DNA of 64,000 nt, from positions 496,001 through 560,000 of the forward strand of contig JADNRZ010000005.1 of assembly GCA_015501605.1 (NCBI GenBank), given 5' to 3'. The notes below the pieces were generated by a model, which was not told where the DNA came from, searched no databases, and saw nothing but the letters and a program-made list of their open reading frames with translations. Both the position numbers and the translations under genes were made by a program. Source of the stretch: Panaeolus papilionaceus. Lineage: Eukaryota > Basidiomycota > Agaricomycetes > Agaricales. This document shows positions 1,769 to 62,168 of the stretch, piece after piece (the first letter of the stretch is position 1; each line of letters starts with the position of its first letter).

Positions 1769-4700
1769 TTGACGTCAACATCCCCTTGTCTGTCTATACA
1801 TTCTGTTCTTCTATCATCAATTGATAATAAATCTGTTTCTACACCACTGTTGATTACCATAAGAACACCTGAAGGAAAAGAAATTGTCGAAACAAAGGCT
1901 CTTATTGACTCAGGAGCTGGAGGAGATTTTATTGATACACAATTCGCCAGAAAAATGAACTTACCATTGAAACAACTTCAGAATCCCATCACTGCATACA
2001 ATGTGGATGGTACCAAGAATCAAACAGGAACAATCTCCCATTACATTGATCTCGAATTCAAAATTGGAAACCGAACCATGACCCAAAGATTTTTCATCAC
2101 TGGATTAGGAAAACAGAAAATCATTCTAGGATTTACCTGGTTAAAGAAATACAATCCACAGATTCAATGGGACAAAGGAATCCTTGAATGGGATCAAGAC
2201 TGATCTTATGAAACTAGAAACAAAGAAAATCCTGATCTATCTCTTGTCATCTCATTCATTGAAGGACGAATGACTGAAGAAATGAAAGAAACATGGATCA
2301 ATTCAAACATGACCCATGCTACTGCCTTTGCACAAAAACATGACAAGAAAGAAGAAATCACGAATCTGAAAGAAGCTGTTCCCAAAGAATTTCATGAATA
2401 TCTTGATGTCTTTTCAGACAAAGCAGCATCTCAAATGCCTGAACGGAGATCATGGGATCACAAGATTGATCTGAAACCAGGTTATGAACCTAAATCAGCT
2501 AAGATTTACCCATTATCTCCTGATGAAGAAAAACTGACAAAAGAATTCATTGATGAGAACTTAAAGAAAGGATACATTCAACCAAGCAAATCACCCCAAG
2601 CCTTGTCTTTCTTCTTTGTTCCAAAGAAAGATGGAAAGAAGAAACCCTGTCAAGATTACAGATATCTTAATGAATGGACAGTGAAAAACGCATATCCATT
2701 ACCTTTAGTGGATGATTTGCTTTACAAACTCCAAGGAGCGAAATACTTCACTAAATTCGATGTCTGATGGGGTTACAACAATGTTTGAATCAAGAAAGGA
2801 GATGAATGGAAAGCTGCCTTCAAAACCAAATTTGGATTATTTGAACCTACGGTTATGTTTTTCAGATTATGTAACTCACCTGCAACCTTTCAAGCTATGA
2901 TGGACTTGCTATTTGAAGAACCAATAAGACGCAATATGGTTATCATCTATATGGACAACATTCTCATTTTTGCTAAAACTAAAGAAGAATTGGAAAAATA
3001 TACCAAAGAAGTTCTTAAGATTCTCCAAGAGAACAATCTCTATTTAAAACCAGAGAAATGCGATTTTTAAAAAACATCAATCAATTATCTAGGATTCACA
3101 ATCTCTGAAAACAAGATCACCATGGATTCATCCAAAGTACAAGGAATCACTGAATGGCCAGCTCCCAAGAACGTCAAGCAAGTTCGATCGTTTTTAGGAT
3201 TTGGAAATTTCTATCGCAGATTCATTTGCAAGTATTCAGACAAAGCCAAACCCCTAAATCGTTTATTAGAAAAAGGAAAACCATTTGAATGGAAGCAAGA
3301 ACACCAAGAAGCTTTTGATAATCTAAAACGAAACTTCTCTGAAGAACCAGTACTTATTATGCCTGATGCAACTAAACCATTTTATATTGAAGCTGATGCA
3401 TCCAAATATGCATCAGGAGCAGTTCTTGTTCAAACTGATGAAGGTGGACTACAACACCCATGCGCTTTCATTTCAAAATCATTTTCACCTACTGAAAGAA
3501 ACTATCAAGTATATGATCGAGAACTTCTAGGAATTATTCAAGCACTTGAAGAATGGAGACACTATTTACAAGGATCAAATCATCCAGTTACTGTCTTTTC
3601 CGATCATAAAAACCTCACTTATTGGAGAAAAACTCAAAAACTCAATCCACGACAAGCTCGATGGGCATTGATGCTCACAGAATATGACATTAAATTACAA
3701 CATATGCCTGGAACCAAAATGATTCTATCTGACACCTTATCAAGAAGACCAGACTTTATTCCTGATGAAGATCATGACAATGAAGATATAATCATGTTGC
3801 CAGATAACTTATTTATCAATCTCATCGATACTATACTCCAAGAAGGAATATTGCAATCAAGAAACTATGATCAAAACGCTGCAGATGCTATGAAACTAAT
3901 TATTGAAGATGGACCTAATGAACTCCAGAAAATAATTGAAGAATGGACGATCGAAGAAATCAATGGACAAAATGCACTATTCTTTAAAGGAAAAATATAT
4001 GTTCTGAAAGATATGGAAATTAGGAAAAGAATTCTTCAGATGTATCACAATCATCCAACAGCAGGACATCCAGGAGAACTTCAAACCTACAATGCTATAT
4101 TCCAACATTGTTATTGGCCTGGAATGCTGTTACGGTTGACTTGTTCAGCACATACGAGTCCAGCCGTAGAGTCAACAAGAACGAAGGTTTGAGAGCAAAG
4201 GTCAAAGTTGGTCTTGGGGGTTACGTTGAGTTCGAAAGAATCTAACTAAGAATGCCACTTCGAGAATCGCTCGATGGTATTGTCTTAGCAGAGAGCAAGT
4301 AAAAGAAGTCCAGTAGAAGTTATTGTTCTATTGTAGTTAAAGAACTAGCTAAAGAACATAGGGTATAGTACTGAGGTTTATATACATAATGCTAGTGGTC
4401 TGTGCGCAAGATAAATAAGAGTCAGAAGACAGGGTGAAGGAGTCATAGTGGAGTGTACATGGGAATATGAAAGGGAACGAGTCATAAGAGTGAGAATGAT
4501 GAGTGAGAAAATGAGTCAGAGATAGGAATAAGATGTGGGGCGACAGCGGGAATGGAAGTGGAGTGAGAAGGGAAAAGATAAGAAGATAAGGCGAACTACA
4601 AGTACAAAGAGAGATGATAGTACACGAAGATAAGATAATAGTCTGGATAAGATGAAGAAAAGATAGGGGCATAGTAATAGGATGAAGGACAAAAGATATA

Positions 4701-48948: not shown

Positions 48949-48984
48949 ACCTGCTCCAACCTCAAAAGGAAACTTATGTAAACC

Positions 48985-51900
48985 TAGTGTTGCCGCGAGC
49001 TAGAGCTAGCTCGAGCCGAGTTGAACTCGGAGCTCGACAGATTTCTAAAAAGGCAACTCGACTCGAGCTGACTCTGGTTCGCTCGACCGCATTAGTCCAA
49101 CAGTTTTGATGTGAGTGGGAATGCCGACACACCTGCCGCACTGTAGGAGTTTGCTCACTCAACATCTCTTTCCATTACTTCCATCTGTCGCCATCGTCGC
49201 AAAAATTTCTGGCCTCCCCCGCTCCCATTTCTTTCAACAACCGTGCCCACTATCTGCAATTTTGCATATCGCCATGCATCTTAGCGTATGTACCTCAATT
49301 TATTTCATCAATTGCCACTGATCTCAACACAAAATGCAGGGATTGAACCCCATCGAAAAGCGTCGATAAACCAGAGAATATCACGTTTTGCGATGCGCGA
49401 CGCGTCTTTGTTTGTTGAATGTGGATTAAAGGCGTCGGGATTGGTGACTTGGGGATAGGGTATAAAAGAGAGATGACGACGATGATTCAGGCATCATCGC
49501 CACTGGTATGTCTTCCGCTACACGGCCATGCTTGTGTCCTATATCCCAGCCATGTAATTGTTACAATAATAATCAACAATCTTCCACTCCTTACGCCTCA
49601 TATGTCCCATATAATCAATCTGCCTCACACTATAACCATGCAACACCATATAATAACACACACCATCCGTATCAGCAAGCCACTCTTTCAACATATATTC
49701 CTACATCTTATAATCCTTATCATTATATTCATTATGTACCACCCACTCCATTAACACCACCAACACCTCTCAGAGACACCACAAACGTTCTAACTGAAGC
49801 AGCAGAGGACTCATCATCAAACAAACGAAAGAAGCCTCCTGGCGCAATTGCAAGTACTGCAAAGCGTTCTCGTCTAAATCCGGCTACCTCAACTACTGTT
49901 CCACCTGCCGCCACCACTCCAAATCCTAATCTCCCTGCGCGATCTATTCCCAGTCCGGCTGCATATGGAGTTGGACCCGTTGTACATGCACCACTCCCTC
50001 AATCAGCTTCATCTTCCACTCCCCATACCCCAACCTTCTCCTGCCGCGTGGACAATGAGAATGTCATACCAGGTTCTGTTCTCACTCCAGGACCCAACCA
50101 GACCGACCACGGGCTCGCTTCGGACGTGTGGTACTTCACGCGAGGACTCAAATCGAAAGACAAGCCCATGCTATTGGAAACACCAGAAAAGCGATTACGG
50201 GAAAGACCAGATCGAGAGATCTACTCACATCTGGGTTGTATCCTTTGCGTGTAAGTATTTATTTATTATATCTACCGGTTCAATCGAACTTACGATGTTA
50301 CACAGCTTTCCTACAGCTTGGAAGACGTGGAAAAATTGTGATGGTCAGCGGAAGACTATTAGGACCCATCTCGAAAAGCACCACTTGCTCTTATGGCGCG
50401 AACTGGTCGTTCTCAATAAGCTCAAAGGTTGGGATAAACCGATGGAGCGTGAACTTGAGCTTGAAGAAGGCGAGATGCGCCCTTTCACCATTGCAGAATT
50501 TCATGATCTGCTTGCTAGGTGGATTTCCGCGGACGATCAGGTAAGTTTACATTAGGATTATTACTCTTACAGCCCGCTTATATTTTCTTCGCAGTCCATC
50601 AATGTTGTCGAGTGCCCAGAACTAAGACACATTTTTACCTTCATTGGCCAGCATTCTCTGGTTGATGACGACATTCCCCACCGAACAAAAATGGGGAAGA
50701 TTATGACTGAAACCTTTGAGCAGCAATACAGCCAGATGAAGCAAAACCTTCAGGTACATGACTTTCAACTCTTTTGACTCCTGGTTATTCTATTGTGTTC
50801 ATCACTTGCTTTACAGGACTCAGAAGGCCGTATTTCGCTTACAACCGATATTTGGTCGCGTACAAGTCTCGAAGGCTACATGGGTGTCACAGCCCATTAC
50901 ATCATCAAAAACTTCAAGTCCTATGTTCTTCAAAAAGAGCTCATTGCGTTTAGGCGAATCAAAGGTGCACATACAGGAGAAAGAATGGCGAAAGAAATGT
51001 GTGCAGTATTAGAGGACGTCGGTATCACAAATAAGGTATTATCTATTCATTATCTTTCACTTTAATGATTTCATAGTCTAATTTAAATGAATAGCTCGGT
51101 CACATTACCACCGACAACGCATCAAATAATTCAACCATGATGGAAGAAATGGTTGATGCTCTTGAAGAGCTTGGGGTTCCATTTCATGCGAAGGCCAATC
51201 ACATTCGGTGTGTTTTAGTCAGTCCTATTGCTGAACGCATTTTATTAACTCCACGTTTCAACAGCTGTTTCCCTCATGTTATAAACTTGGCCGTAAAGGC
51301 TATCATCAGTGCATTGACTAAGCCCTTTGAATTGCCACCTGGCGCAAGTGCGACTGATGAGGAGTACCGCACTGCACTTGAGGCTGATGTTGTTGGGCGT
51401 GTGCGTCGGTTTGTTGTATTAGTCAGAGGCTCGGGTAAGCGCCGAGAACTCTTTGAGGATATCATCAAGGAAATTAATGACGCTGGTGGCTTCGGCGAAA
51501 CGGAGAAGGTTCTGCTACGCGAAGTTGGATTGCTAAAGGACATGGACGTCCGGTGGTCAGCCAACTTCCAAATGGTTGATCGGTTTATTGAATTATCTCC
51601 GGTATGTTAATTAAATTCACGAGTGCGTGCAATGGTCACTAACACATAATTTATTATCAGGCATGCGAGAAATTTGTCGAAAAAGATTGGGACTTTGATG
51701 AATATAAATTCTCACAGATGGAGCTGAAGGTGTTGCGAGATTATCGAGATCTCCTTTCCATCTTCCATTGCATTCAGGAGGTTGTCTCAGGAGAGCAGAC
51801 ACCTACCCTTTCTGTTGTCCTTCCTATGTACGAGAAGCTTATTGTTGTTTTATGCAACTACAGCACTGTCAAACCCCAGCTTCGGCACGCAGTTAATCCC

Positions 51901-53173
51901 GCAATTGATAAGCTCAAGAAGTACATGTCGGAAGCGCGATCAACCAAAGCTTATGTGCTTGCCATGGGTAAGTGTTCAGTTCTAAATTCTCTCGCATTAG
52001 GGCTTGCTGAATTCAAACACTTTGATTTAAGTACTCAATCCCACTATCAAATTTGCATGGTTGAAGCAGCATTGGTCTCCTTCAGAGTACACTGCAGCGC
52101 GTGTAGCGGTATTTGATGTTGTGAGTCATTTAAATATTCTGAACCCCGAAAATAATAATTGCTGACATTTTCCTTAGCTTCTTGAGTTCTCTCGAGCATC
52201 GTCACAACACTCGAGTTCCAATCCAGGCCGAAAATTGGTCAAGGTACCATCAGCCTCGTCAGCCAGTCGCTCACTCAATTCTGGCATGGCAAGATTTCAC
52301 GAACTCGCACGGAGTTTCTCAGATTCGGCGATTGCGGTATTGGCAGAACGTTCAGCACAACCGCCTTCACCTACATCGGACACATCAGAATCATTGAGTA
52401 CATCTAATATCAGTGAAGAGGAGCATAAAGCAGCAGTCACACAAGAACTTTCAGATTACGAAGCAACTGAGCCCATGAGTGACGAAGATGCCATGGACCT
52501 TGATCTGCTTCGATTCTGGCAGGTACGGGAGTTATCATCTTTGAATTATGACGCGCTTATCAAACTAACATATATTCTTGATTTTACAGGAACGGAGACA
52601 TCAGTACCCGTTGCTGTTTAGACTCTGTCTTGATGTGCTACCAATCCAAGCTTCCGCCGTTCCCTCTGAGCGTGTATTTTCATCAAGTAAAGAAACAGAC
52701 ACATTACGTCGGGCAAATCTTGGTCACATTCGGATGGAGCAACTCCAGATCATGAAGTATCGGTTTCGAAATGAGCGTCTTTCGTTCACAGATAACCTCA
52801 TCTGCTCCAAGAAAGAACTTTCCGTTCTGGACATGGATCAGGAGCACATCGAGAAACTCCTCAATGAGGGCAAACTAGAACTCCTTCATAAATACATTGA
52901 TGAATCGAAGCAGCAGTGGGGAGAGGGAAGTAAATAGATTGTAATTCTTGCTAGTCTTATACATACATTCATATAATTTCGATAATATTTACCACTCTCC
53001 GTCTAATGGTCTGAGGTTTTTCAGGAGCGCTTGAGCCGAACTGCCGACATCCCAAATTGGGACGAGTCGTGATGTAGCTCCGAGCTGGGCTCGACTCGAG
53101 TCGAGCCCGAGTTCGTCGGGGTTTGAAAATTCAGCAGCTCGAGTTAGCTCTAAACTCGCTCGCGGCAACACTA
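48985..53173 (+). mobile_element. hAT DNA transposon, left copy (4,189 bp)
   Basis: Ends are 16-bp perfect inverted repeats, TAGTGTTGCCGCGAGC. It carries a complete transposase on the plus strand. Left flank (48977-48984) is tgtaaacc and right flank (53174-53181) is gtctgggg: they do not match each other but are the reverse complements of flanks on the right copy. Near the ends are dense CTCGAG/CGAGCTC words, probable transposase-binding sites. Confidence 0.95.
49508..52937 (+). CDS. hAT transposase, left copy (964 residues, ten exons)
   Basis: Exons 49508-50250, 50306-50540, 50595-50753, 50817-51035, 51095-51207, 51265-51601, 51661-51967, 52032-52120, 52178-52522, 52590-52937; phases close to 965 codons. 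The head is Pro/Ser/Thr-rich. Cys and His at the exon 1-2 junction (GCILC ... HLEKHH) form a BED-like zinc finger. Catalytic-core motifs are TTDIWSRTSLEGYMGVTAHY and ITTDNASNN, then CFPHVINLAV. The C-terminal dimerisation region has LPIQASAVPSERVFSSSKET. The enzyme cuts and pastes hAT ends and leaves 8-bp duplications. No stop or frameshift is seen, so it may be active. Confidence 0.92.
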
Positions 53174-53470
53174 GTCTGGGGTATCCAAGTCCAGCCCATC
53201 CATGGCAGAGTCTGTCGGAAGATAATCGCGTGCGTTTACGATGGCGATCACCAGAGTCTCTAAAGCTGGAACTTGAAGATGTAAATCCTAGAATTGATGG
53301 CACCTAAATGCAAGCCATGGAAGATCGACGCGACAACTTGAATAGTGCAACTTATGCGTATGATGCAGATGCGACATCCAATTCAACTAAATTAGCCGCG
53401 ATGCTCTTGAATAGACCTGTGGTCTTTTCCCAAACTGCTCCAGTTTGGACGTGATCCTCCGATTTGGTAT
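53174..53470 (-). pseudogene. F-box-like gene fragment X2, 5' part
   Basis: On the minus strand this reads a segment with KTTGLFKSIAANLVELDVAS and ends MDGLDLDTPD at the hAT junction. The segment near 53373-53455 is a diverged duplicate of 54094-54180 (KVPDMLKTTASNLVELDAAH). Its continuation is at 59210-59463, on the other side of the palindrome. Confidence 0.6.
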
Positions 53471-53532
53471 ATTATGATAGGGGTGCCGGAATGAACCACG
53501 CACACCTGTCACCAGGACGGCTACTTTGCCGG

Positions 53533-54727
53533 TTAGTTGATTATCTCGAAGTCCACCTCCACACCTCTAGATGTGTACCTCGGGAGTTTATTCCTGAAGT
53601 GAGTGAGGAGTGCATCGTCTTTTGGATCCGACCAGTCCTCAAACCGCGCTGCCGAAACAACCTTCGAGAGGCGGTTGCCCTTATCCCGATACATGGCACG
53701 GTCAGCGAGTTTCGAATTCGTCAAAATACCGTCTTCGCGATGCGGATCGCTTTATTGGGATATCGCCTCGTCAAGGATCGTCCAAGGTTAAACGCCCAGT
53801 CTTGTCAGAGTCTTCGAAAGGTATATTCGAGCATCCGCGACGCAAATCACATTGTCTCCAGACCGGGGAGATGTATATTTGCTAGTAGGCATTTGAGCGC
53901 GTACTCTGAATCCCCCAGCGGAAGACTGCGTCCTGCTGAATAACCACTAAATTGCGTTATCCTCAGCTTTAGCGTGCGTAGCTTCGGAAACCTGATGCAT
54001 TTGGCAGCCGCAGTAGCCTGTGAAGCAAAAGGTAAGTGTTATAAACCGTCGTGACTTAAGGACAGCTTACGGTCATAATTTATCTCGTGAGCAGCGTCCA
54101 ATTCAACCAAATTGGAGGCGGTCGTCTTGAGCATATCCGGCACCTTGTCCCAGAATGAATCCGACAGAACCGTGACATCGACGCGAAGAATCGAAGATTT
54201 CACAAAAAGCGTCTCGAAACCAGAGTCATGAGGCCAAAACCACCGATTCCGCTAATCACACTGTTCTTCGAGGTGTTCAAGCGTGAAGGTTCTCCTGCCT
54301 TGAACGAGTTCAAGTTCAGTGTCATGCACAGGGGATGCATGGCCTTCTTCAGACCTAAACATGACTGTCAACTTGAATCGCGTTGTAAATGAGCGGTCCA
54401 TGGGCATGGTGATTTCTTTGGTATCTGACCATTCCTCGGGTTCCAGGTCGGCGTATAGAATAGCCCTCCGCACATGCTGTAGCAAAGGTAGTCGCTGTCG
54501 CAGGGGGCACTTTCGTTAGGTGGTGAGGCAGGCTCAAGGAGCTCTCGCAGGGCAAGGAGAGACTGGAGAGAGAGATCGTCGAGCGTTGCAAATGAGAATC
54601 GACGACAAAGGTGGCACCACTCTCTAGACACCAATGCGAAGTCCAACAGGTCTTCTGGATCATCAGAGATTACTACAAATAATAAAATGTTGGTGATTAT
54701 GTTGGTATATAAGGTGGGTAAATACTT
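53533..54727 (-). pseudogene. F-box-like gene X1, decayed
   Basis: Starts MKYLPTLYTNIITNILLFVV near 54727, followed by an F-box-like DPEDLLDFALVSREWCHLC. A second good stretch is 54485-54252 (YADLEPEEWSDTKEI), then NLVELDAAH near 54094, and finally NRLSKVVSAARFEDWSDPKD near 53630. In-frame stops (including near 53775 and 53755) and frame changes show decay. The last part is related to the sequence at 59310-59370. Confidence 0.55.
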
Positions 54728-54783
54728 CATGTTTCCCTTTTGAAGCAACATGACAGTGTGCGGGAGAGCTGCATGCTATCACA

Positions 54784-55020
54784 TTGAGTTTAACCTCTAA
54801 ATTTCCGAAATTTCCATCTTCCCACCAGATAGATACTCAGGGTCTCCCTAGTTCATGTGGTATGACGACGTGCCCGAGGTACAGAATAAACGTAAATGAC
54901 GAAAGCAATGATCAAGCCCAGCAGAAGAACATTTCCGATAACACCTCCAACAATACGCCGACATTAGTCTTCTTGCCAGATGACTGCCCTGGCGTGTCAG
55001 TCGCGAAGGTGGGGTTTACA
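54784..55020 (-). pseudogene. Remnant of a single-pass membrane protein
   Basis: Minus strand: DTPGQSSGKKTNVG, then after a one-base shift IVGGVIGNVLLLGLIIAFVI and YVYSVPRARR. This is a Ser-rich stalk, one transmembrane helix and a basic tail, as in many basidiomycete mucin-like surface proteins. The N-terminal part is missing at the hAT junction. Confidence 0.4.
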
Positions 55021-58000
55021 TAGTGTTGCCGCGAGCGAGTTTAGAGCTAACTCGAGCTGCTGAATTTTCAAACCCCGACGAACTCGGGCTCGACTCGAGT
55101 CGAGCCCAGCTCGGAGCTACATCACGACTCGTCCCAATTTGGGATGTCGGCAGTTCGGCTCAAGCGCTCCTGAAAAACCTCAGACCATTAGACGGAGAGT
55201 GGTAAATATTATCGAAATTATATGAATGTATGTATAAGACTAGCAAGAATTACAATCTATTTACTTCCCTCTCCCCACTGCTGCTTCGATTCATCAATGT
55301 ATTTATGAAGGAGTTCTAGTTTGCCCTCATTGAGGAGTTTCTCGATGTGCTCCTGATCCATGTCCAGAACGGAAAGTTCTTTCTTGGAGCAGATGAGGTT
55401 ATCTGTGAACGAAAGACGCTCATTTCGAAACCGATACTTCATGATCTGGAGTTGCTCCATCCGAATGTGACCAAGATTTGCCCGACGTAATGTGTCTGTT
55501 TCTTTACTTGATGAAAATACACGCTCAGAGGGAACGGCGGAAGCTTGGATTGGTAGCACATCAAGACAGAGTCTAAACAGCAACGGGTACTGATGTCTCC
55601 GTTCCTGTAAAATCAAGAATATATGTTAGTTTGATAAGCGCGTCATAATTCAAAGATGATAACTCCCGTACCTGCCAGAATCGAAGCAGATCAAGGTCCA
55701 TGGCATCTTCGTCACTCATGGGCTCAGTTGCTTCGTAATCTGAAAGTTCTTGTGTGACTGCTGCTTTATGCTCCTCTTCACTGATATTAGATGTACTCAA
55801 TGATTCTGATGTGTCCGATGTAGGTGAAGGCGGTTGTGCTGAACGTTCTGCCAATACCGCAATCGCCGAATCTGAGAAACTCCGTGCGAGTTCGTGAAAT
55901 CTTGCCATGCCAGAATTGAGTGAGCGACTGGCTGACGAGGCTGATGGTACCTTGACCAATTTTCGGCCTGGATTGGAACTCGAGTGTTGTGACGATGCTC
56001 GAGAGAACTCAAGAAGCTAAGGAAAATGTCAGCAATTATTATTTTCGGGGTTCAGAATATTTAAATGACTCACAACATCAAATACCGCTACACGCGCTGC
56101 AGTGTACTCTGAAGGAGACCAATGCTGCTTCAACCATGCAAATTTGATAGTGGGATTGAGTACTTAAATCAAAGTGTTTGAATTCAGCAAGCCCTAATGC
56201 GAGAGAATTTAGAACTGAACACTTACCCATGGCAAGCACATAAGCTTTGGTTGATCGCGCTTCCGACATGTACTTCTTGAGCTTATCAATTGCGGGATTA
56301 ACTGCGTGCCGAAGCTGGGGTTTGACAGTGCTGTAGTTGCATAAAACAACAATAAGCTTCTCGTACATAGGAAGGACAACAGAAAGGGTAGGTGTCTGCT
56401 CTCCTGAGACAACCTCCTGAATGCAATGGAAGATGGAAAGGAGATCTCGATAATCTCGCAACACCTTCAGCTCCATCTGTGAGAATTTATATTCATCAAA
56501 GTCCCAATCTTTTTCGACAAATTTCTCGCATGCCTGATAATAAATTATGTGTTAGTGACCATTGCACGCACTCGTGAATTTAATTAACATACCGGAGATA
56601 ATTCAATAAACCGATCAACCATTTGGAAGTTGGCTGACCACCGGACGTCCATGTCCTTTAGCAATCCAACTTCGCGTAGCAGAACCTTCTCCGTTTCGCC
56701 GAAGCCACCAGCGTCATTAATTTCCTTGATGATATCCTCAAAGAGTTCTCGGCGCTTACCCGAGCCTCTGACTAATACAACAAACCGACGCACACGCCCA
56801 ACAACATCAGCCTCAAGTGCAGTGCGGTACTCCTCATCAGTCGCACTTGCGCCAGGTGGCAATTCAAAGGGCTTAGTCAATGCACTGATGATAGCCTTTA
56901 CGGCCAAGTTTATAACATGAGGGAAACAGCTGTTGAAACGTGGAGTTAATAAAATGCGTTCAGCAATAGGACTGACTAAAACACACCGAATGTGATTGGC
57001 CTTCGCATGAAATGGAACCCCAAGCTCTTCAAGAGCATCAACCATTTCTTCCATCATGGTTGAATTATTTGATGCGTTGTCGGTGGTAATGTGACCGAGC
57101 TATTCATTTAAATTAGACTATGAAATCATTAAAGTGAAAGATAATGAATAGATAATACCTTATTTGTGATACCGACGTCCTCTAATACTGCACACATTTC
57201 TTTCGCCATTCTTTCTCCTGTATGTGCACCTTTGATTCGCCTAAACGCAATGAGCTCTTTTTGAAGAACATAGGACTTGAAGTTTTTGATGATGTAATGG
57301 GCTGTGACACCCATGTAGCCTTCGAGACTTGTACGCGACCAAATATCGGTTGTAAGCGAAATACGGCCTTCTGAGTCCTGTAAAGCAAGTGATGAACACA
57401 ATAGAATAACCAGGAGTCAAAAGAGTTGAAAGTCATGTACCTGAAGGTTTTGCTTCATCTGGCTGTATTGCTGCTCAAAGGTTTCAGTCATAATCTTCCC
57501 CATTTTTGTTCGGTGGGGAATGTCGTCATCAACCAGAGAATGCTGGCCAATGAAGGTAAAAATGTGTCTTAGTTCTGGGCACTCGACAACATTGATGGAC
57601 TGCGAAGAAAATATAAGCGGGCTGTAAGAGTAATAATCCTAATGTAAACTTACCTGATCGTCCGCGGAAATCCACCTAGCAAGCAGATCATGAAATTCTG
57701 CAATGGTGAAAGGGCGCATCTCGCCTTCTTCAAGCTCAAGTTCACGCTCCATCGGTTTATCCCAACCTTTGAGCTTATTGAGAACGACCAGTTCGCGCCA
57801 TAAGAGCAAGTGGTGCTTTTCGAGATGGGTCCTAATAGTCTTCCGCTGACCATCACAATTTTTCCACGTCTTCCAAGCTGTAGGAAAGCTGTGTAACATC
57901 GTAAGTTCGATTGAACCGGTAGATATAATAAATAAATACTTACACGCAAAGGATACAACCCAGATGTGAGTAGATCTCTCGATCTGGTCTTTCCCGTAAT

Positions 58001-59209
58001 CGCTTTTCTGGTGTTTCCAATAGCATGGGCTTGTCTTTCGATTTGAGTCCTCGCGTGAAGTACCACACGTCCGAAGCGAGCCCGTGGTCGGTCTGGTTGG
58101 GTCCTGGAGTGAGAACAGAACCTGGTATGACATTCTCATTGTCCACGCGGCAGGAGAAGGTTGGGGTATGGGGAGTGGAAGATGAAGCTGATTGAGGGAG
58201 TGGTGCATGTACAACGGGTCCAACTCCATATGCAGCCGGACTGGGAATAGATCGCGCAGGGAGATTAGGATTTGGAGTGGTGGCGGCAGGTGGAACAGTA
58301 GTTGAGGTAGCCGGATTTAGACGAGAACGCTTTGCAGTACTTGCAATTGCGCCAGGAGGCTTCTTTCGTTTGTTTGATGATGAGTCCTCTGCTGCTTCAG
58401 TTAGAACGTTTGTGGTGTCTCTGAGAGGTGTTGGTGGTGTTAATGGAGTGGGTGGTACATAATGAATATAATGATAAGGATTATAAGATGTAGGAATATA
58501 TGTTGAAAGAGTGGCTTGCTGATACGGATGGTGTGTGTTATTATATGGTGTTGCATGGTTATAGTGTGAGGCAGATTGATTATATGGGACATATGAGGCG
58601 TAAGGAGTGGAAGATTGTTGATTATTATTGTAACAATTACATGGCTGGGATATAGGACACAAGCATGGCCGTGTAGCGGAAGACATACCAGTGGCGATGA
58701 TGCCTGAATCATCGTCGTCATCTCTCTTTTATACCCTATCCCCAAGTCACCAATCCCGACGCCTTTAATCCACATTCAACAAACAAAGACGCGTCGCGCA
58801 TCGCAAAACGTGATATTCTCTGGTTTATCGACGCTTTTCGATGGGGTTCAATCCCTGCATTTTGTGTTGAGATCAGTGGCAATTGATGAAATAAATTGAG
58901 GTACATACGCTAAGATGCATGGCGATATGCAAAATTGCAGATAGTGGGCACGGTTGTTGAAAGAAATGGGAGCGGGGGAGGCCAGAAATTTTTGCGACGA
59001 TGGCGACAGATGGAAGTAATGGAAAGAGATGTTGAGTGAGCAAACTCCTACAGTGCGGCAGGTGTGTCGGCATTCCCACTCACATCAAAACTGTTGGACT
59101 AATGCGGTCGAGCGAACCAGAGTCAGCTCGAGTCGAGTTGCCTTTTTAGAAATCTGTCGAGCTCCGAGTTCAACTCGGCTCGAGCTAGCTCTAGCTCGCG
59201 GCAACACTA
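55021..59209 (-). mobile_element. hAT DNA transposon, right copy (4,189 bp, inverted)
   Basis: Mirror image of the left copy: position x pairs with 108194 minus x throughout. All translated frames in the two arms are identical and no base difference was found where I compared nucleotides. Left flank (55013-55020) is ggtttaca and right flank (59210-59217) is ccccagac. Confidence 0.95.
55257..58686 (-). CDS. hAT transposase, right copy (964 residues, ten exons)
   Basis: Exons mirror those of the left copy: the start codon is at 58686, the stop at 55257, and each boundary equals 108194 minus the left-copy coordinate. The same BED-like finger, core motifs and dimerisation region are present and intact. 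Two identical intact transposase genes in one locus point to very recent transposition, gene conversion between the arms, or both. Confidence 0.92.
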
Positions 59210-59463
59210 CCCCAGACGAGGCAATGTCGCAATTGGCACATCCAATTGACGGGGGTATCGCTTCAAAGCACCCTGAGGATGTCACCATAACTCAGGCCAG
59301 ATCCAACCGTTTCTCAAAGGTTGTGGTAGCAGCATGGTTCGAGGATTGGTCGGGTCCCAAAGGCGACTCACTGATCGCTTACGTCAAAAAGAAACTGCAC
59401 AGGTGCACTTTTGTAGACCTAGAGGTGGACTTCGAGATACTCAATGAAACTGATTTGGATTAA
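59210..59463 (+). pseudogene. F-box-like gene fragment X2, 3' part
   Basis: Frame DEAMSQLAHPIDGG ... NRFSKVVVAAWFEDWSGPKG ... ending at a TAA at 59461-59463. It is related to X1 near 53533-53790 in the spacer. Its frame is continuous with the minus strand of the spacer (ending MDGLDLDTPD at 53174) once the hAT and one 8-bp duplication are removed. Confidence 0.6.
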
Positions 59464-59708
59464 TCAAACAATTACATGAATATTTAATTAATATCACAAA
59501 AACTGGAACAATCATTTGGGTACATGTTTGAAATAAAAAACGAGAATAGAAACAGAAAAAAAAAACTAGAAGTGTCGCATAGTCGGTATATGCCGTATCA
59601 CAACATACAACATGAAATATATACAATATAATTACCCATACACATCCAATGAAGGTCGAGATATACAAGTTGGAATGAACGCAGAAATCTCAGGACACTA
59701 ACATCTGA

Positions 59709-62168
59709 TCACAGCGTCCCTCTCCTCAACCTCACATTCTCCTCTCTCAATTTTGCATTCTCCTCCCTCAGCTCCTTCAAATCACCAACATACTCCTGCA
59801 TCAATGACCTCAACTCACTCTTCCATGTCCTCCCCACATTCAACAGATCCAAATGGAGCCCCATCATCTCCGCCTTGGTCTCCTGCTGGAAATCGCACAT
59901 CACATCCCTCACAATCGTCCGAAGAAGCTCGTGCGCACTTGATGGGTTGCCGGTGGCGCCAGAGCTAGGTGACGCTGCCCATTCATCAGCAGCAGCATTG
60001 AGGTTGCCCATCCCTGCACCTGTTGCCCCGCGATTCCGCAATGGTGAGATCTGCAGTGACATATTATACCCTGGGCTGGGGTCTTCTTCATCGAAACTCG
60101 CGTCATGCTCGTCGTCCGTCTGGTTCCCTTCTTTGAATCCGACGCTTTTACCCTTTCCTTTTACCCTCTCATCCCTCCCTGCACGTATCCACTCCTCCAC
60201 TTCTGGTGTTGCCAGTCCCAACACGTTCAAGCCCGTCATCGCCCGTCTCTCGTTCTCTGTTGGCGTCGTCGGTCGTGCGTTGAGGTGGATTTCGGGAACC
60301 TCAAATGACAAAGCAGGACTCGCGTCAGCTGTTCGTGAACTACTCGGGATACTCGGAACCGGAGGAAGAGGCGACGAGTCACGTCGCTGTTTTCCTGCTT
60401 GCGAGACGGACGACCCAGTTCGTGAAGCGGATGATGTAGGCCTTGAGCTAGTTGTAGTGGTAGTCTTGGAGGTGATTTTACTGTTTGAGGCTGCTGAAGC
60501 GACGTCAGTGCCAGCACGAGATGAAGACGAGGCAGCGCGTGTTCTCATTGCAGATTGTCGAGTCGTGGCGGAGGCAAAAGAAGGGGGCTGTTTGGGTGAA
60601 TTGAGGTTGGAAGTACTTGCGCTGGGCAGAGTGCGCGCGCGACGGATGTTTTCAGTCGGGGCATCTGTTGTCACGACTTTGCGCGTTTTGGTGACTGCAC
60701 TTATTGGCCGCAAGGATGAGGGAGGCGAACGTGAATCAGGTACAGCTTTAGTTGCTGCTCTGATAGGAGTTCCGTTAGGGATGCTTTGATCTTTTGAAGG
60801 TGTGTCATCTGTGGAAGGAAAATGTAAGTACGAAAATTCGGCGTCCTTTAAATACATCATACCAGAAGTATCGTTTGTGTTGCGTGAAGGGGAAGCTGTC
60901 GCTTTCTTAATAGTTGCATTCGGTGCGGGTTTGATTGCAACAACGCGACGAGGAGGGGCAGGTGAAGCCACTGCAGGTTTAGATGCACGGGTTCTAACGG
61001 GTGACGAAGCTACTTTAGATTTCGTGCTGGCGGCAACCGTCGTCCCAGCAGCTCCTTTCTTGGTCGCGGGCATTGCCTCAGCAGACGCCTTCTTGTTGAG
61101 TTTCGTTGTCGTGGTCAAAGGAGTCTTGCTGAAAGGGTCTGGTGATGGTTTGCTGATTTTGCGCTAAATTGAATTGGCTTGAAAATGCTTTGACTCAAGT
61201 GACAACGGATCAAAATTACCTGGATGCTCATAGTTTCAATACGCTGCCCATCTTGACTAATGACAACAGTCTTGGGTGGTTTATCTAGCGCGCGCAGGTC
61301 AACTATGAGAAGTTTTCCTGTTGCGGTTCCCAGATAAATTGCAGCTCCCTCTGGTGAAAACCCGATCGTCGCGAGGGGAGTCCGAACCAGCAGTGTCCGG
61401 AATAATCTGAAAATAGTCAATTACATCCCTCCAGATCAAAGTCGTAGAGACGTACGATTTTTCCTTCTCCAAGTCAAGCAGCGCAATTGTGCCTCCCGAA
61501 GTGGCAACAGCAACCAACGACTTGCTGAACGGGCTGCAAGCAACGGCCACGATCGTTCCTATTGCTGATTCAGACAGCCCAACGGTCTTGAGAGGTGCGC
61601 TACGCTTTGCAACATCGTAGATCATCAACTCCCTACCAGCTCCAACGAGCAGTTTTGTGGGTAAATGAAGGTGGAAACAGGAGACTTGGACGTCATCTGA
61701 GACTGCCATGCTTTGCAAGATAGTCAGAGACCCATCGCTGAGGTTGTGCAGATGAATAGAGCTGGCTGATGTCGACGCTAGTAACGTTCCATCGTTTGAT
61801 AGAGAGATAGAGGTGATGGTATCTTTGTGGGTATCAATAATTTGGGATATTTCTGGTGTTGAGGACATGTCCAAGATATGAACTTTGTCGGCCGTTGCAA
61901 ATACAAGAGTTACAGCATCTCTTGTAACGATGTATTGAATCCTTTCATAGGAAGCTACCGAGTAAATTTCTTCGAAACCGTTGGTTTCTGGGTCATATCT
62001 GTAAATAGAATTTGCTGAGGCGAGATAGAGATACAAGTTGTCAGTCGACCATGCTGTTGCGGTAGGTGCCTCTGGTGGTTGAACAGTCTGCGGTAGTGAT
62101 GGTGGTGGTTTCTTGAGAGTTGCAGGATCTGTTATACAGAGAGAATCGAGTGTTGTCGCGGCGAACAT
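59709..62168 (-). CDS. NEDD1/GCP-WD-like WD40 protein (766 residues, four exons)
   Basis: Exons 62168-61456, 61406-61220, 61163-60863, 60808-59709; phases close to 767 codons. The 54-nt last intron has no stop in frame and could be misread as coding. Residues 1-300 are a WD40 propeller (repeats such as ITSISLSNDGTLLASTSASS and GFSPEGAAIYLGTATGKLLI). The middle is Ser/Thr/Ala-rich and disordered. The C-terminus is a helical coiled coil (ELLRTIVRDVMCDFQQE ... LREENAKLREENVRLRR). This layout is that of NEDD1, which recruits gamma-tubulin complexes to microtubule-organising centres. The architecture is clear; the orthology is inferred. Confidence 0.65.

What the first reader, a model, noticed from the sequence alone, without database searches (positions are those of the whole stretch)
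48977..59217. hAT palindrome with swapped 8-bp target duplications: an inversion caught in place
Two 4,189-bp hAT copies lie inverted around a 1,847-bp spacer. Neither copy has matching flanks: left copy tgtaaacc / gtctgggg, right copy ggtttaca / ccccagac. But tgtaaacc is the reverse complement of ggtttaca, and gtctgggg of ccccagac. Two ordinary insertions in opposite orientation followed by recombination between them would invert the spacer and give exactly this pattern. It means the spacer is now reversed relative to the ancestral chromosome. I know of few cases so legible from one sequence.
Basis: partly seen in the sequence, partly recalled or inferred. Interest (0 to 1): 0.88.

Follow-up and report, generated by a model that had tools for sequence, protein, structure and literature searches.

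The report
Transposon twins around a flipped segment
Two identical copies of a cut-and-paste jumping gene face each other around 1.8 kb of chromosome that has been turned end for end, as an uninterrupted relative of the same region elsewhere in the genome shows; a second, smaller case in the same genome suggests the transposon itself may have done the flipping.

Summary
Confirmed. The arms 48985-53173 (+) and 55021-59209 (-) are 4,189/4,189 identical, and the 8-bp flanks are swapped as described. A TE-free paralogue on contig C34 is collinear with the un-flipped order across both junctions, and a C34 open frame runs through the right-hand one. So, as assembled, the spacer is reversed relative to the ancestor.

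One-step hybrid-element insertion gives the same swap and predicts identical copies (PMC2775673). These are the only full-length copies the genome search found. A second identical inverted twin, of a related 1,179-bp element, lies on the same contig; one duplication is swapped, the other junction has none. Nine of nine solitary copies with both ends recognised, among the loci examined, have ordinary duplications.

A known kind of event (Galileo, P, Ac), unusually clean. An assembler flip is unlikely but not excluded.

The parts
48977..48984 (+). TGTAAACC, outer half of target duplication A
   Evidence: reverse complement of 55013-55020
48985..53173 (+). left hAT copy, 4,189 bp, 5' end outward
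   Evidence: TIR TAGTGTTGCCGCGAGC at both ends; besides the right copy, no other full-length match among the 8 found in the genome
52578..52937 (+). transposase reading frame with hAT C-terminal dimerisation domain (left copy)
   Evidence: Pfam PF05699 E 7.9e-8; Hermes transposase only at E 0.027, behind designed armadillo proteins at E 0.01-0.016, so not significant by sequence
53174..53181 (+). GTCTGGGG, inner (displaced) half of target duplication B
   Evidence: reverse complement of 59210-59217
53182..55012 (-). inverted spacer, 1,831 bp; carries an F-box-like frame and a fragment of a membrane-protein-like gene (the latter named by eye) that read on the - strand now
   Evidence: C34 paralogue collinear only after re-inversion
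53537..53677 (-). 141-bp paralogue of 59304-59444 (73.8%), inverted now, direct in the restored order
54368..54751 (-). F-box-like open frame in the spacer
   Evidence: Pfam F-box-like E 0.0091, below its curated cut-off
55013..55020 (+). GGTTTACA, inner (displaced) half of target duplication A
55021..59209 (-). right hAT copy, 4,189 bp, 0 differences from the left copy
55257..55616 (-). transposase reading frame with hAT dimerisation domain (right copy)
   Evidence: same translation as 52578-52937; PF05699 match on this copy
59210..59217 (+). CCCCAGAC, outer half of target duplication B
59218..59463 (+). 3' part of a reading frame (F-box family inferred from its neighbour and C34) cut off from its upstream part by insertion plus inversion
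   Evidence: frame continues across the restored junction; the homologous C34 frame L019:2022-2579(-) is uninterrupted

Best explanation
A hAT transposon generated a 1.8-kb inversion and sits at both of its ends. Shown: two identical inverted copies, swapped 8-bp duplications, and a TE-free paralogue with the un-flipped order at both junctions. Inferred route: one element stood at one of the two sites with an ordinary duplication. After replication, the transposase paired the 3' end of the copy on one sister chromatid with the 5' end of the copy on the other, and inserted that hybrid pair into a target 1.8 kb away. This left a copy of the same element at each end and flipped the DNA between (hybrid-element insertion, a form of alternative transposition). 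The confidence given is for this one-step route; for the inversion itself, as a feature of the assembled sequence, I put it at about 0.93.
For: Inversion: outer-left edge lands at C34:1532518-1532566 (-), inner-right at 1532421-1532519 (+), inner-left at 1528296-1528373 (+), outer-right at 1528175-1528269 (-). Local scores are 83, 151, 76 and 90, against a maximum of 40 for 300 random 100-mers from window 1-40000. The restored sequence aligns as unbroken blocks across both junctions: 172 bp at 90.7% and 472 bp at 83.5%. A C34 frame of 185 aa reads through the right junction. Route: 0 differences in 4,189 bp, against 20 mismatches in 1,640 aligned positions to the nearest other copy, on C70; the only two full-length copies found in 50.85 Mb lie 1.8 kb apart. 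PMC2775673 states that hybrid insertion predicts identical copies and ectopic recombination chimeric ones. A second twin on the same contig (C45:2198352-2199530 and 2199939-2201117) is 1,179/1,179 identical against 20 differences to the third copy (C5), has one duplication swapped, and its restored left junction is present TE-free at C27 (400/400) and C7 (99.25%).
Against: Swapped duplications are equally expected from recombination between two ordinary insertions, and two young copies from one source would also be identical, so identity is only suggestive. Gene conversion between nearby inverted arms could also erase differences. The second twin's other junction (CTATAGAC / GATGTGAC) shows no duplication, so it does not fit clean hybrid insertion either; it needs an extra step, such as end joining or a flanking deletion, in either model. 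On the inversion: a 200-bp present-order query at the right junction scored 160 on C34 against 149 for the restored one. The 160 is the score of the inner-right edge alone (160), so that join adds nothing, while 149 is well above either of its edges alone (76 and 90); but the raw ranking of those two queries goes the other way. Hybrid-element insertion by this element has not been shown experimentally.
Confidence: 0.5

Rival explanations
1. Two ordinary insertions 1.8 kb apart in opposite orientation (a local hop of one element), then homologous recombination between the arms flipped the spacer; it may still flip back and forth.
For: Predicts both swapped duplications exactly. Long identical inverted arms this close are good recombination substrates (general knowledge). 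Published precedent in Galileo (PMC2775673).
Against: Chimeric copies, the usual proof, cannot be tested because the arms are identical. Unrelated insertions so close are improbable when only two full-length copies were found in 50.85 Mb, so a local hop must be added. The second twin lacks a duplication at one junction, which two ordinary insertions would not give without a further change.
Confidence: 0.38
2. The true chromosome is un-flipped with ordinary duplications, and the assembler placed the spacer backwards between two identical 4.2-kb arms.
For: Identical inverted arms are a classic cause of orientation errors (general knowledge); un-flipping restores two ordinary 8-bp duplications. 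No reads were available and the assembly method is unknown.
Against: 71 contigs for 50.85 Mb and a 2.58-Mb contig here suggest long reads (inference; contigs seen range from 0.15 to 3.4 Mb), and a read crossing one arm fixes the orientation. The second twin, with arms of only 1.18 kb and a 0.4-kb spacer, is flipped in the same way at the testable junction and is harder to misplace.
Confidence: 0.08
3. Chance or fold-back artefact: the palindrome is a read or assembly fold and the 8-mer matches are coincidence.
For: None found; considered because long palindromes are a known artefact.
Against: Outer flanks differ on the two sides and both map to the expected places in C34; two swapped 8-mers by chance is about 1e-9.
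Confidence: 0.01

Closest known systems
Galileo-bounded inversions of Drosophila buzzatii (2j, 2q7, 2z3)
   Same: Two class II copies in opposite orientation at the ends of an inverted segment with exchanged target duplications (PMC2775673, abstract and section 10 part 1 read, for 2z3).
   Different: P-superfamily element (so called in the abstract of PMC4168063, seen in the listing) with 7-bp duplications; copies chimeric; chromosome-scale inversions. Here hAT, 8 bp, identical copies, 1.8 kb.
Hybrid element insertion of Drosophila P elements
   Same: Predicts an inversion flanked by two identical copies with exchanged duplications (as described in PMC2775673).
   Different: Here inferred from one assembly. 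Gray et al. 1996 itself not read, seen only as a citation in PMC8225341.
Alternative transposition of maize Ac/Ds (reversed-ends and sister-chromatid transposition)
   Same: 8-bp duplications (hAT membership of Ac recalled); termini of two copies used in one reaction, producing inversions (PMC8225341 passages and section 15 read; PMC3744419 passages).
   Different: Reversed-ends events need two pre-existing directly oriented copies and lose the DNA between them; here the shared duplication A means both copies came from one site. The inverted fragments there were 80.9 to 81.8 kb.
impala rearrangements in Fusarium
   Same: Rearrangement by non-standard transposition in a fungus (only as cited in PMC8225341; original not seen).
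   Different: Tc1/mariner element (recalled), not hAT.

Membership tests
hAT superfamily transposon | 8-bp target duplication | tested here: met
   9 of 9 solitary copies of this TIR group with both ends recognised in the loci examined (C70, C5, C6, C41, C67:1819442, C17, C23, C3, C15) have perfect direct 8-bp duplications; 5 further fetched loci (C19, C67:583621, C71, C29, C14) had no recognisable pair of ends and were not counted
hAT superfamily transposon | short TIR beginning TAGNG / CAGNG (motif recalled) | tested here: met
   TAGTGTTGCCGCGAGC at both ends
hAT superfamily transposon | C-terminal dimerisation domain in transposase | tested here: met
   PF05699 32.4 bits, cut-off 21.4; the two other transposase-region frames given to the same call matched no family
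hAT superfamily transposon | catalytic DDE residues and intact transposase gene | not tested
   coding frames appear split by introns; no gene model was built
Transposon-bounded inversion with exchanged duplications | opposite orientation and exchanged duplications | tested here: met
Transposon-bounded inversion with exchanged duplications | TE-free relative with the opposite spacer orientation | tested here: met
   C34 paralogue, both junctions; a paralogue, not an orthologous allele
Inversion by ectopic recombination (Galileo type) | chimeric copies | tested here: inconclusive
   arms 100% identical, no informative sites
Hybrid-element insertion | identical copies with exchanged duplications | tested here: met
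   0 of 4,189 differences; also compatible with two young insertions
Hybrid-element insertion | arises in a single event from one element | not testable with these tools
   needs populations or an experiment

The most novel reading that the evidence does not exclude
This group of hAT elements habitually makes tail-to-tail identical twins by one-step hybrid transposition between sister chromatids. Two independent twins stand in one genome, with the trapped DNA flipped in both (both junctions shown for one, one junction for the other). Because the only two full-length copies found of the transposase-bearing element now form a long inverted repeat, read-through transcription could give a hairpin RNA that silences the whole family, so the transposon's own mis-step would have shut it down. 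(Silencing of Mutator and Ac/Ds through inverted copies is mentioned in PMC8225341 section 15.)
Probability: 0.3. Interest if true: 0.65.

Novelty: new member of a known kind. Interest (0 to 1): 0.5.

Why it matters
Here both insertion sites, both copies and the ancestral order can all be read from one genome, with no differences between the copies, so little has been lost to later change. Having two twins in one genome, one perfect and one with a missing duplication, makes it testable whether this hAT transposase makes inversions directly, as Ac/Ds does. It also puts the only full-length copies found in a structure that may recombine repeatedly or silence itself.

Tried and rejected
Chance match of the 8-mers: rejected (and independently by the C34 order). 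Fold-back artefact: rejected because the outer flanks differ and map to the expected C34 positions. Reversed-ends transposition from two different pre-existing elements: disfavoured, because it would leave two different outer duplications, whereas here the outer-left and inner-right 8-mers are the same site. The 141-bp repeat between the spacer and the right flank first looked like part of the palindrome; it is a paralogous piece of the local gene family and is direct in the restored order. Other close inverted hAT pairs: among the 33 Dimer_Tnp_hAT matches listed (coordinates only, counts are lower bounds) the window pair is the only close opposite-strand pair of equal score; C4:1544909(+) and C4:1557137(-) are about 12 kb apart but match different parts of the profile and were not examined further. 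The TIR pattern scan gave 46 hits against 23 for the reversed-pattern control, so many of its two-mismatch hits are probably noise; apart from those at C3, C5, C23, C29, C67:1820241 and the C45 twin, they were not examined (a few were cut as loci all the same). An exact search for the second element's outer end found 3 places, the twin and C5. The second twin's right-hand junction could not be tested with a paralogue: the right flank is repetitive from about 12-21 bp outward and the first 170 bp of that spacer gave no other match. A look for the nested repeat's own duplication around the second twin gave only a 3-bp match, too weak to use. Organism and assembly method: not determined; a fungus is inferred from gene content and compactness only.
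Full report
WHAT IS THERE. The window carries two copies of a 4,189-bp hAT element, 48985-53173 (+) and 55021-59209 (-), identical base for base, around a 1,831-bp spacer (1,847 bp with the two inner 8-mers). The four 8-bp flanks are TGTAAACC and GTCTGGGG around the left copy, GGTTTACA and CCCCAGAC around the right copy. Outer-left is the reverse complement of inner-right, and inner-left of outer-right. Two random 8-mers of this window agree with probability about 3.3e-5. The element has a 16-bp TIR (TAGTGTTGCCGCGAGC) and a hAT dimerisation domain (PF05699, 32.4 bits against a cut-off of 21.4). Two other frames from its transposase region matched no Pfam family, and among solved structures Hermes transposase appears only at E 0.027, behind unrelated designed proteins at E 0.01-0.016, so the structure search adds little.

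IS THE SPACER REALLY FLIPPED? An independent test exists in the same genome. Contig C34 holds a TE-free paralogue of the spacer and of both flanks. The 100 bp abutting each of the four transposon ends were placed on C34: outer-left at 1532518-1532566 (-), inner-right at 1532421-1532519 (+), inner-left at 1528296-1528373 (+), outer-right at 1528175-1528269 (-). So outer-left and inner-right are neighbours on C34, and inner-left and outer-right are neighbours, whereas in the window each outer flank is next to the other inner edge. Scores were 83, 151, 76 and 90, against a maximum of 40 in 300 random 100-mers from window 1-40000.

With the spacer turned back, 7 of the 13 blastn blocks form one chain in order along C34, two of them running unbroken across the former junctions (172 bp at 90.7% and 472 bp at 83.5%). 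The other 6 are off the chain (5 of them cross-matches within the local gene repeats); all 13 are on one strand, whereas in the present order spacer and flanks map to opposite strands. The base-by-base alignments show single, unduplicated sites on C34. One number goes the other way at first sight: a 200-bp present-order query at the right junction scores 160, the restored one 149. The 160 is exactly the score of the inner-right edge alone, so that join gains nothing, while 149 exceeds its two edges alone (76 and 90); at the left junction the restored join scores 235 and the present one 83.

A 185-aa C34 open frame reads through the position of the right-hand junction (L019:2022-2579), and the window's own frame becomes continuous there in the restored order. 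The left junction rests on only 49 bp of outer homology (94%, E 6.8e-13), beyond which the two loci differ. C34 is a paralogue (about 75-94% alike by block of the chain), not an allele, so it shows the ancestral order, not the state of sister strains.

HOW DID IT ARISE? Two routes predict swapped duplications. In the first, two ordinary insertions in opposite orientation recombine. In the second, hybrid-element insertion, the transposase uses the ends of the same element on two sister chromatids and inserts them nearby, leaving an identical copy at each end of a flipped segment (my working-out of the sister-chromatid geometry). Delprat et al. 2009 (PMC2775673; abstract and part 1 of section 10 read) state that the two outcomes are strikingly similar, except that copies are identical under hybrid insertion and chimeric under recombination. 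Here the copies are identical, while the closest other copy, an internally deleted 1,637-bp derivative on C70 with ordinary TCACTGCT duplications, differs at 20 of 1,640 aligned positions (3 of its bases counted twice). No other full-length copy was among the 8 matches in the 50.85-Mb assembly (the tool calls its counts lower bounds for large families). Identity is therefore suggestive, not decisive, because two recent insertions of one element would also be identical.

A SECOND TWIN. A scan for the TIR (46 hits, 23 for the reversed-pattern control) showed another inverted pair on the same contig, C45:2198352-2199530 (+) and 2199939-2201117 (-), a 1,179-bp element that aligns with the window's element only over its first 77 bp (76%) and was not scanned for genes. 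Its arms are 1,179/1,179 identical, and the only other full-length copy found (C5, ordinary duplications) differs at 20 positions. Outer-left ACTCTTCC is the reverse complement of inner-right GGAAGAGT. The other two flanks, CTATAGAC and GATGTGAC, do not match. The restored left junction (400 bp) is present without the element at C27 (400/400) and C7 (99.25%), because the element sits in a 1.3-kb repeat. So this spacer too is flipped at the one junction that can be tested. Among copies with both ends recognised in the loci I chose to examine, 9 of 9 solitary ones have perfect direct duplications and 0 of 4 paired ones do. Five fetched loci without a recognisable pair of ends were left out, and most two-mismatch TIR hits were not examined.

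WEIGHING. The second twin's missing duplication fits neither clean model, but it is harder for two ordinary insertions plus recombination, since every solitary copy counted has its duplication. Two identical twins in one genome also favour a process that makes twins. I put one-step hybrid insertion at 0.5, recombination between two insertions at 0.38, an assembler flip at 0.08, and the rest to other causes. An assembler flip is unlikely because 71 contigs for 50.85 Mb and a 2.58-Mb contig here suggest long reads, and the second twin is short enough for modest reads; but the method is unknown and no reads could be checked.

AGAINST WHAT IS KNOWN. Exchanged duplications at transposon-bounded inversions are known from Galileo (PMC2775673). 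Direct production of inversions by transposase is known from maize Ac/Ds, and rearrangements in Fusarium by impala are cited there (PMC8225341, passages and section 15 read; PMC3744419, passages). The present case is a new member of that kind. In a search for fungal hAT inversions with target duplications (7 papers listed) no title or abstract opening describes one like this; the papers were not opened, so this is not proof that none is in print. The element is a hAT by the tested features; its catalytic residues and gene integrity were not tested.

CONSEQUENCE. The right-hand insertion plus the flip cuts the last part of an F-box-family-like frame from its upstream part. The left-hand one lies in a short remnant of a membrane-protein-like gene (by eye from the C34 frame L019:5982-6575). 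Whether the arms still flip in culture, and whether the palindrome silences the family, are open.

Noticed in passing
C45:2198352-2201117 (locus L058:1353-4118): Second identical inverted twin of a related 1,179-bp element, 408-bp spacer, one duplication swapped, the other junction without a duplication.
   Followed up: yes
C70:1568045-1569681 (locus L003:670-2306): Internally deleted 1,637-bp derivative of the window's element, positions 1-806 and 3356-4189 kept, ordinary TCACTGCT duplications.
   Followed up: yes
window 59582-61831: About 2.25 kb, including a 469-aa open frame at 59709-61118 (-), is absent from the otherwise collinear C34 paralogue; gained here or lost there.
   Followed up: no
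window 48928: The strong homology of the left flank to C34 stops 49 bp outside the left target 8-mer, an old duplication edge very near the insertion site.
   Followed up: no
window 53182-53443 and C34:1528684-1530070: C34 has what look by eye like two tandem F-box-like genes where the restored window has a shortened arrangement lacking the front of the second.
   Followed up: partly
C3:1157211-1161520 (locus L020): Diverged 4,310-bp relative of the element with intact GTGCCCCC duplications.
   Followed up: partly
C27 (locus L071:456-1740), C7 (locus L072): A 1.3-kb repeat with inverted ends CACTGTG...CACAGTG, into which the second twin's element had inserted.
   Followed up: partly
window 48973-48984: At the left insertion site the window has 4 bp more than C34 next to the target 8-mer; origin unexplained.
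   Followed up: no
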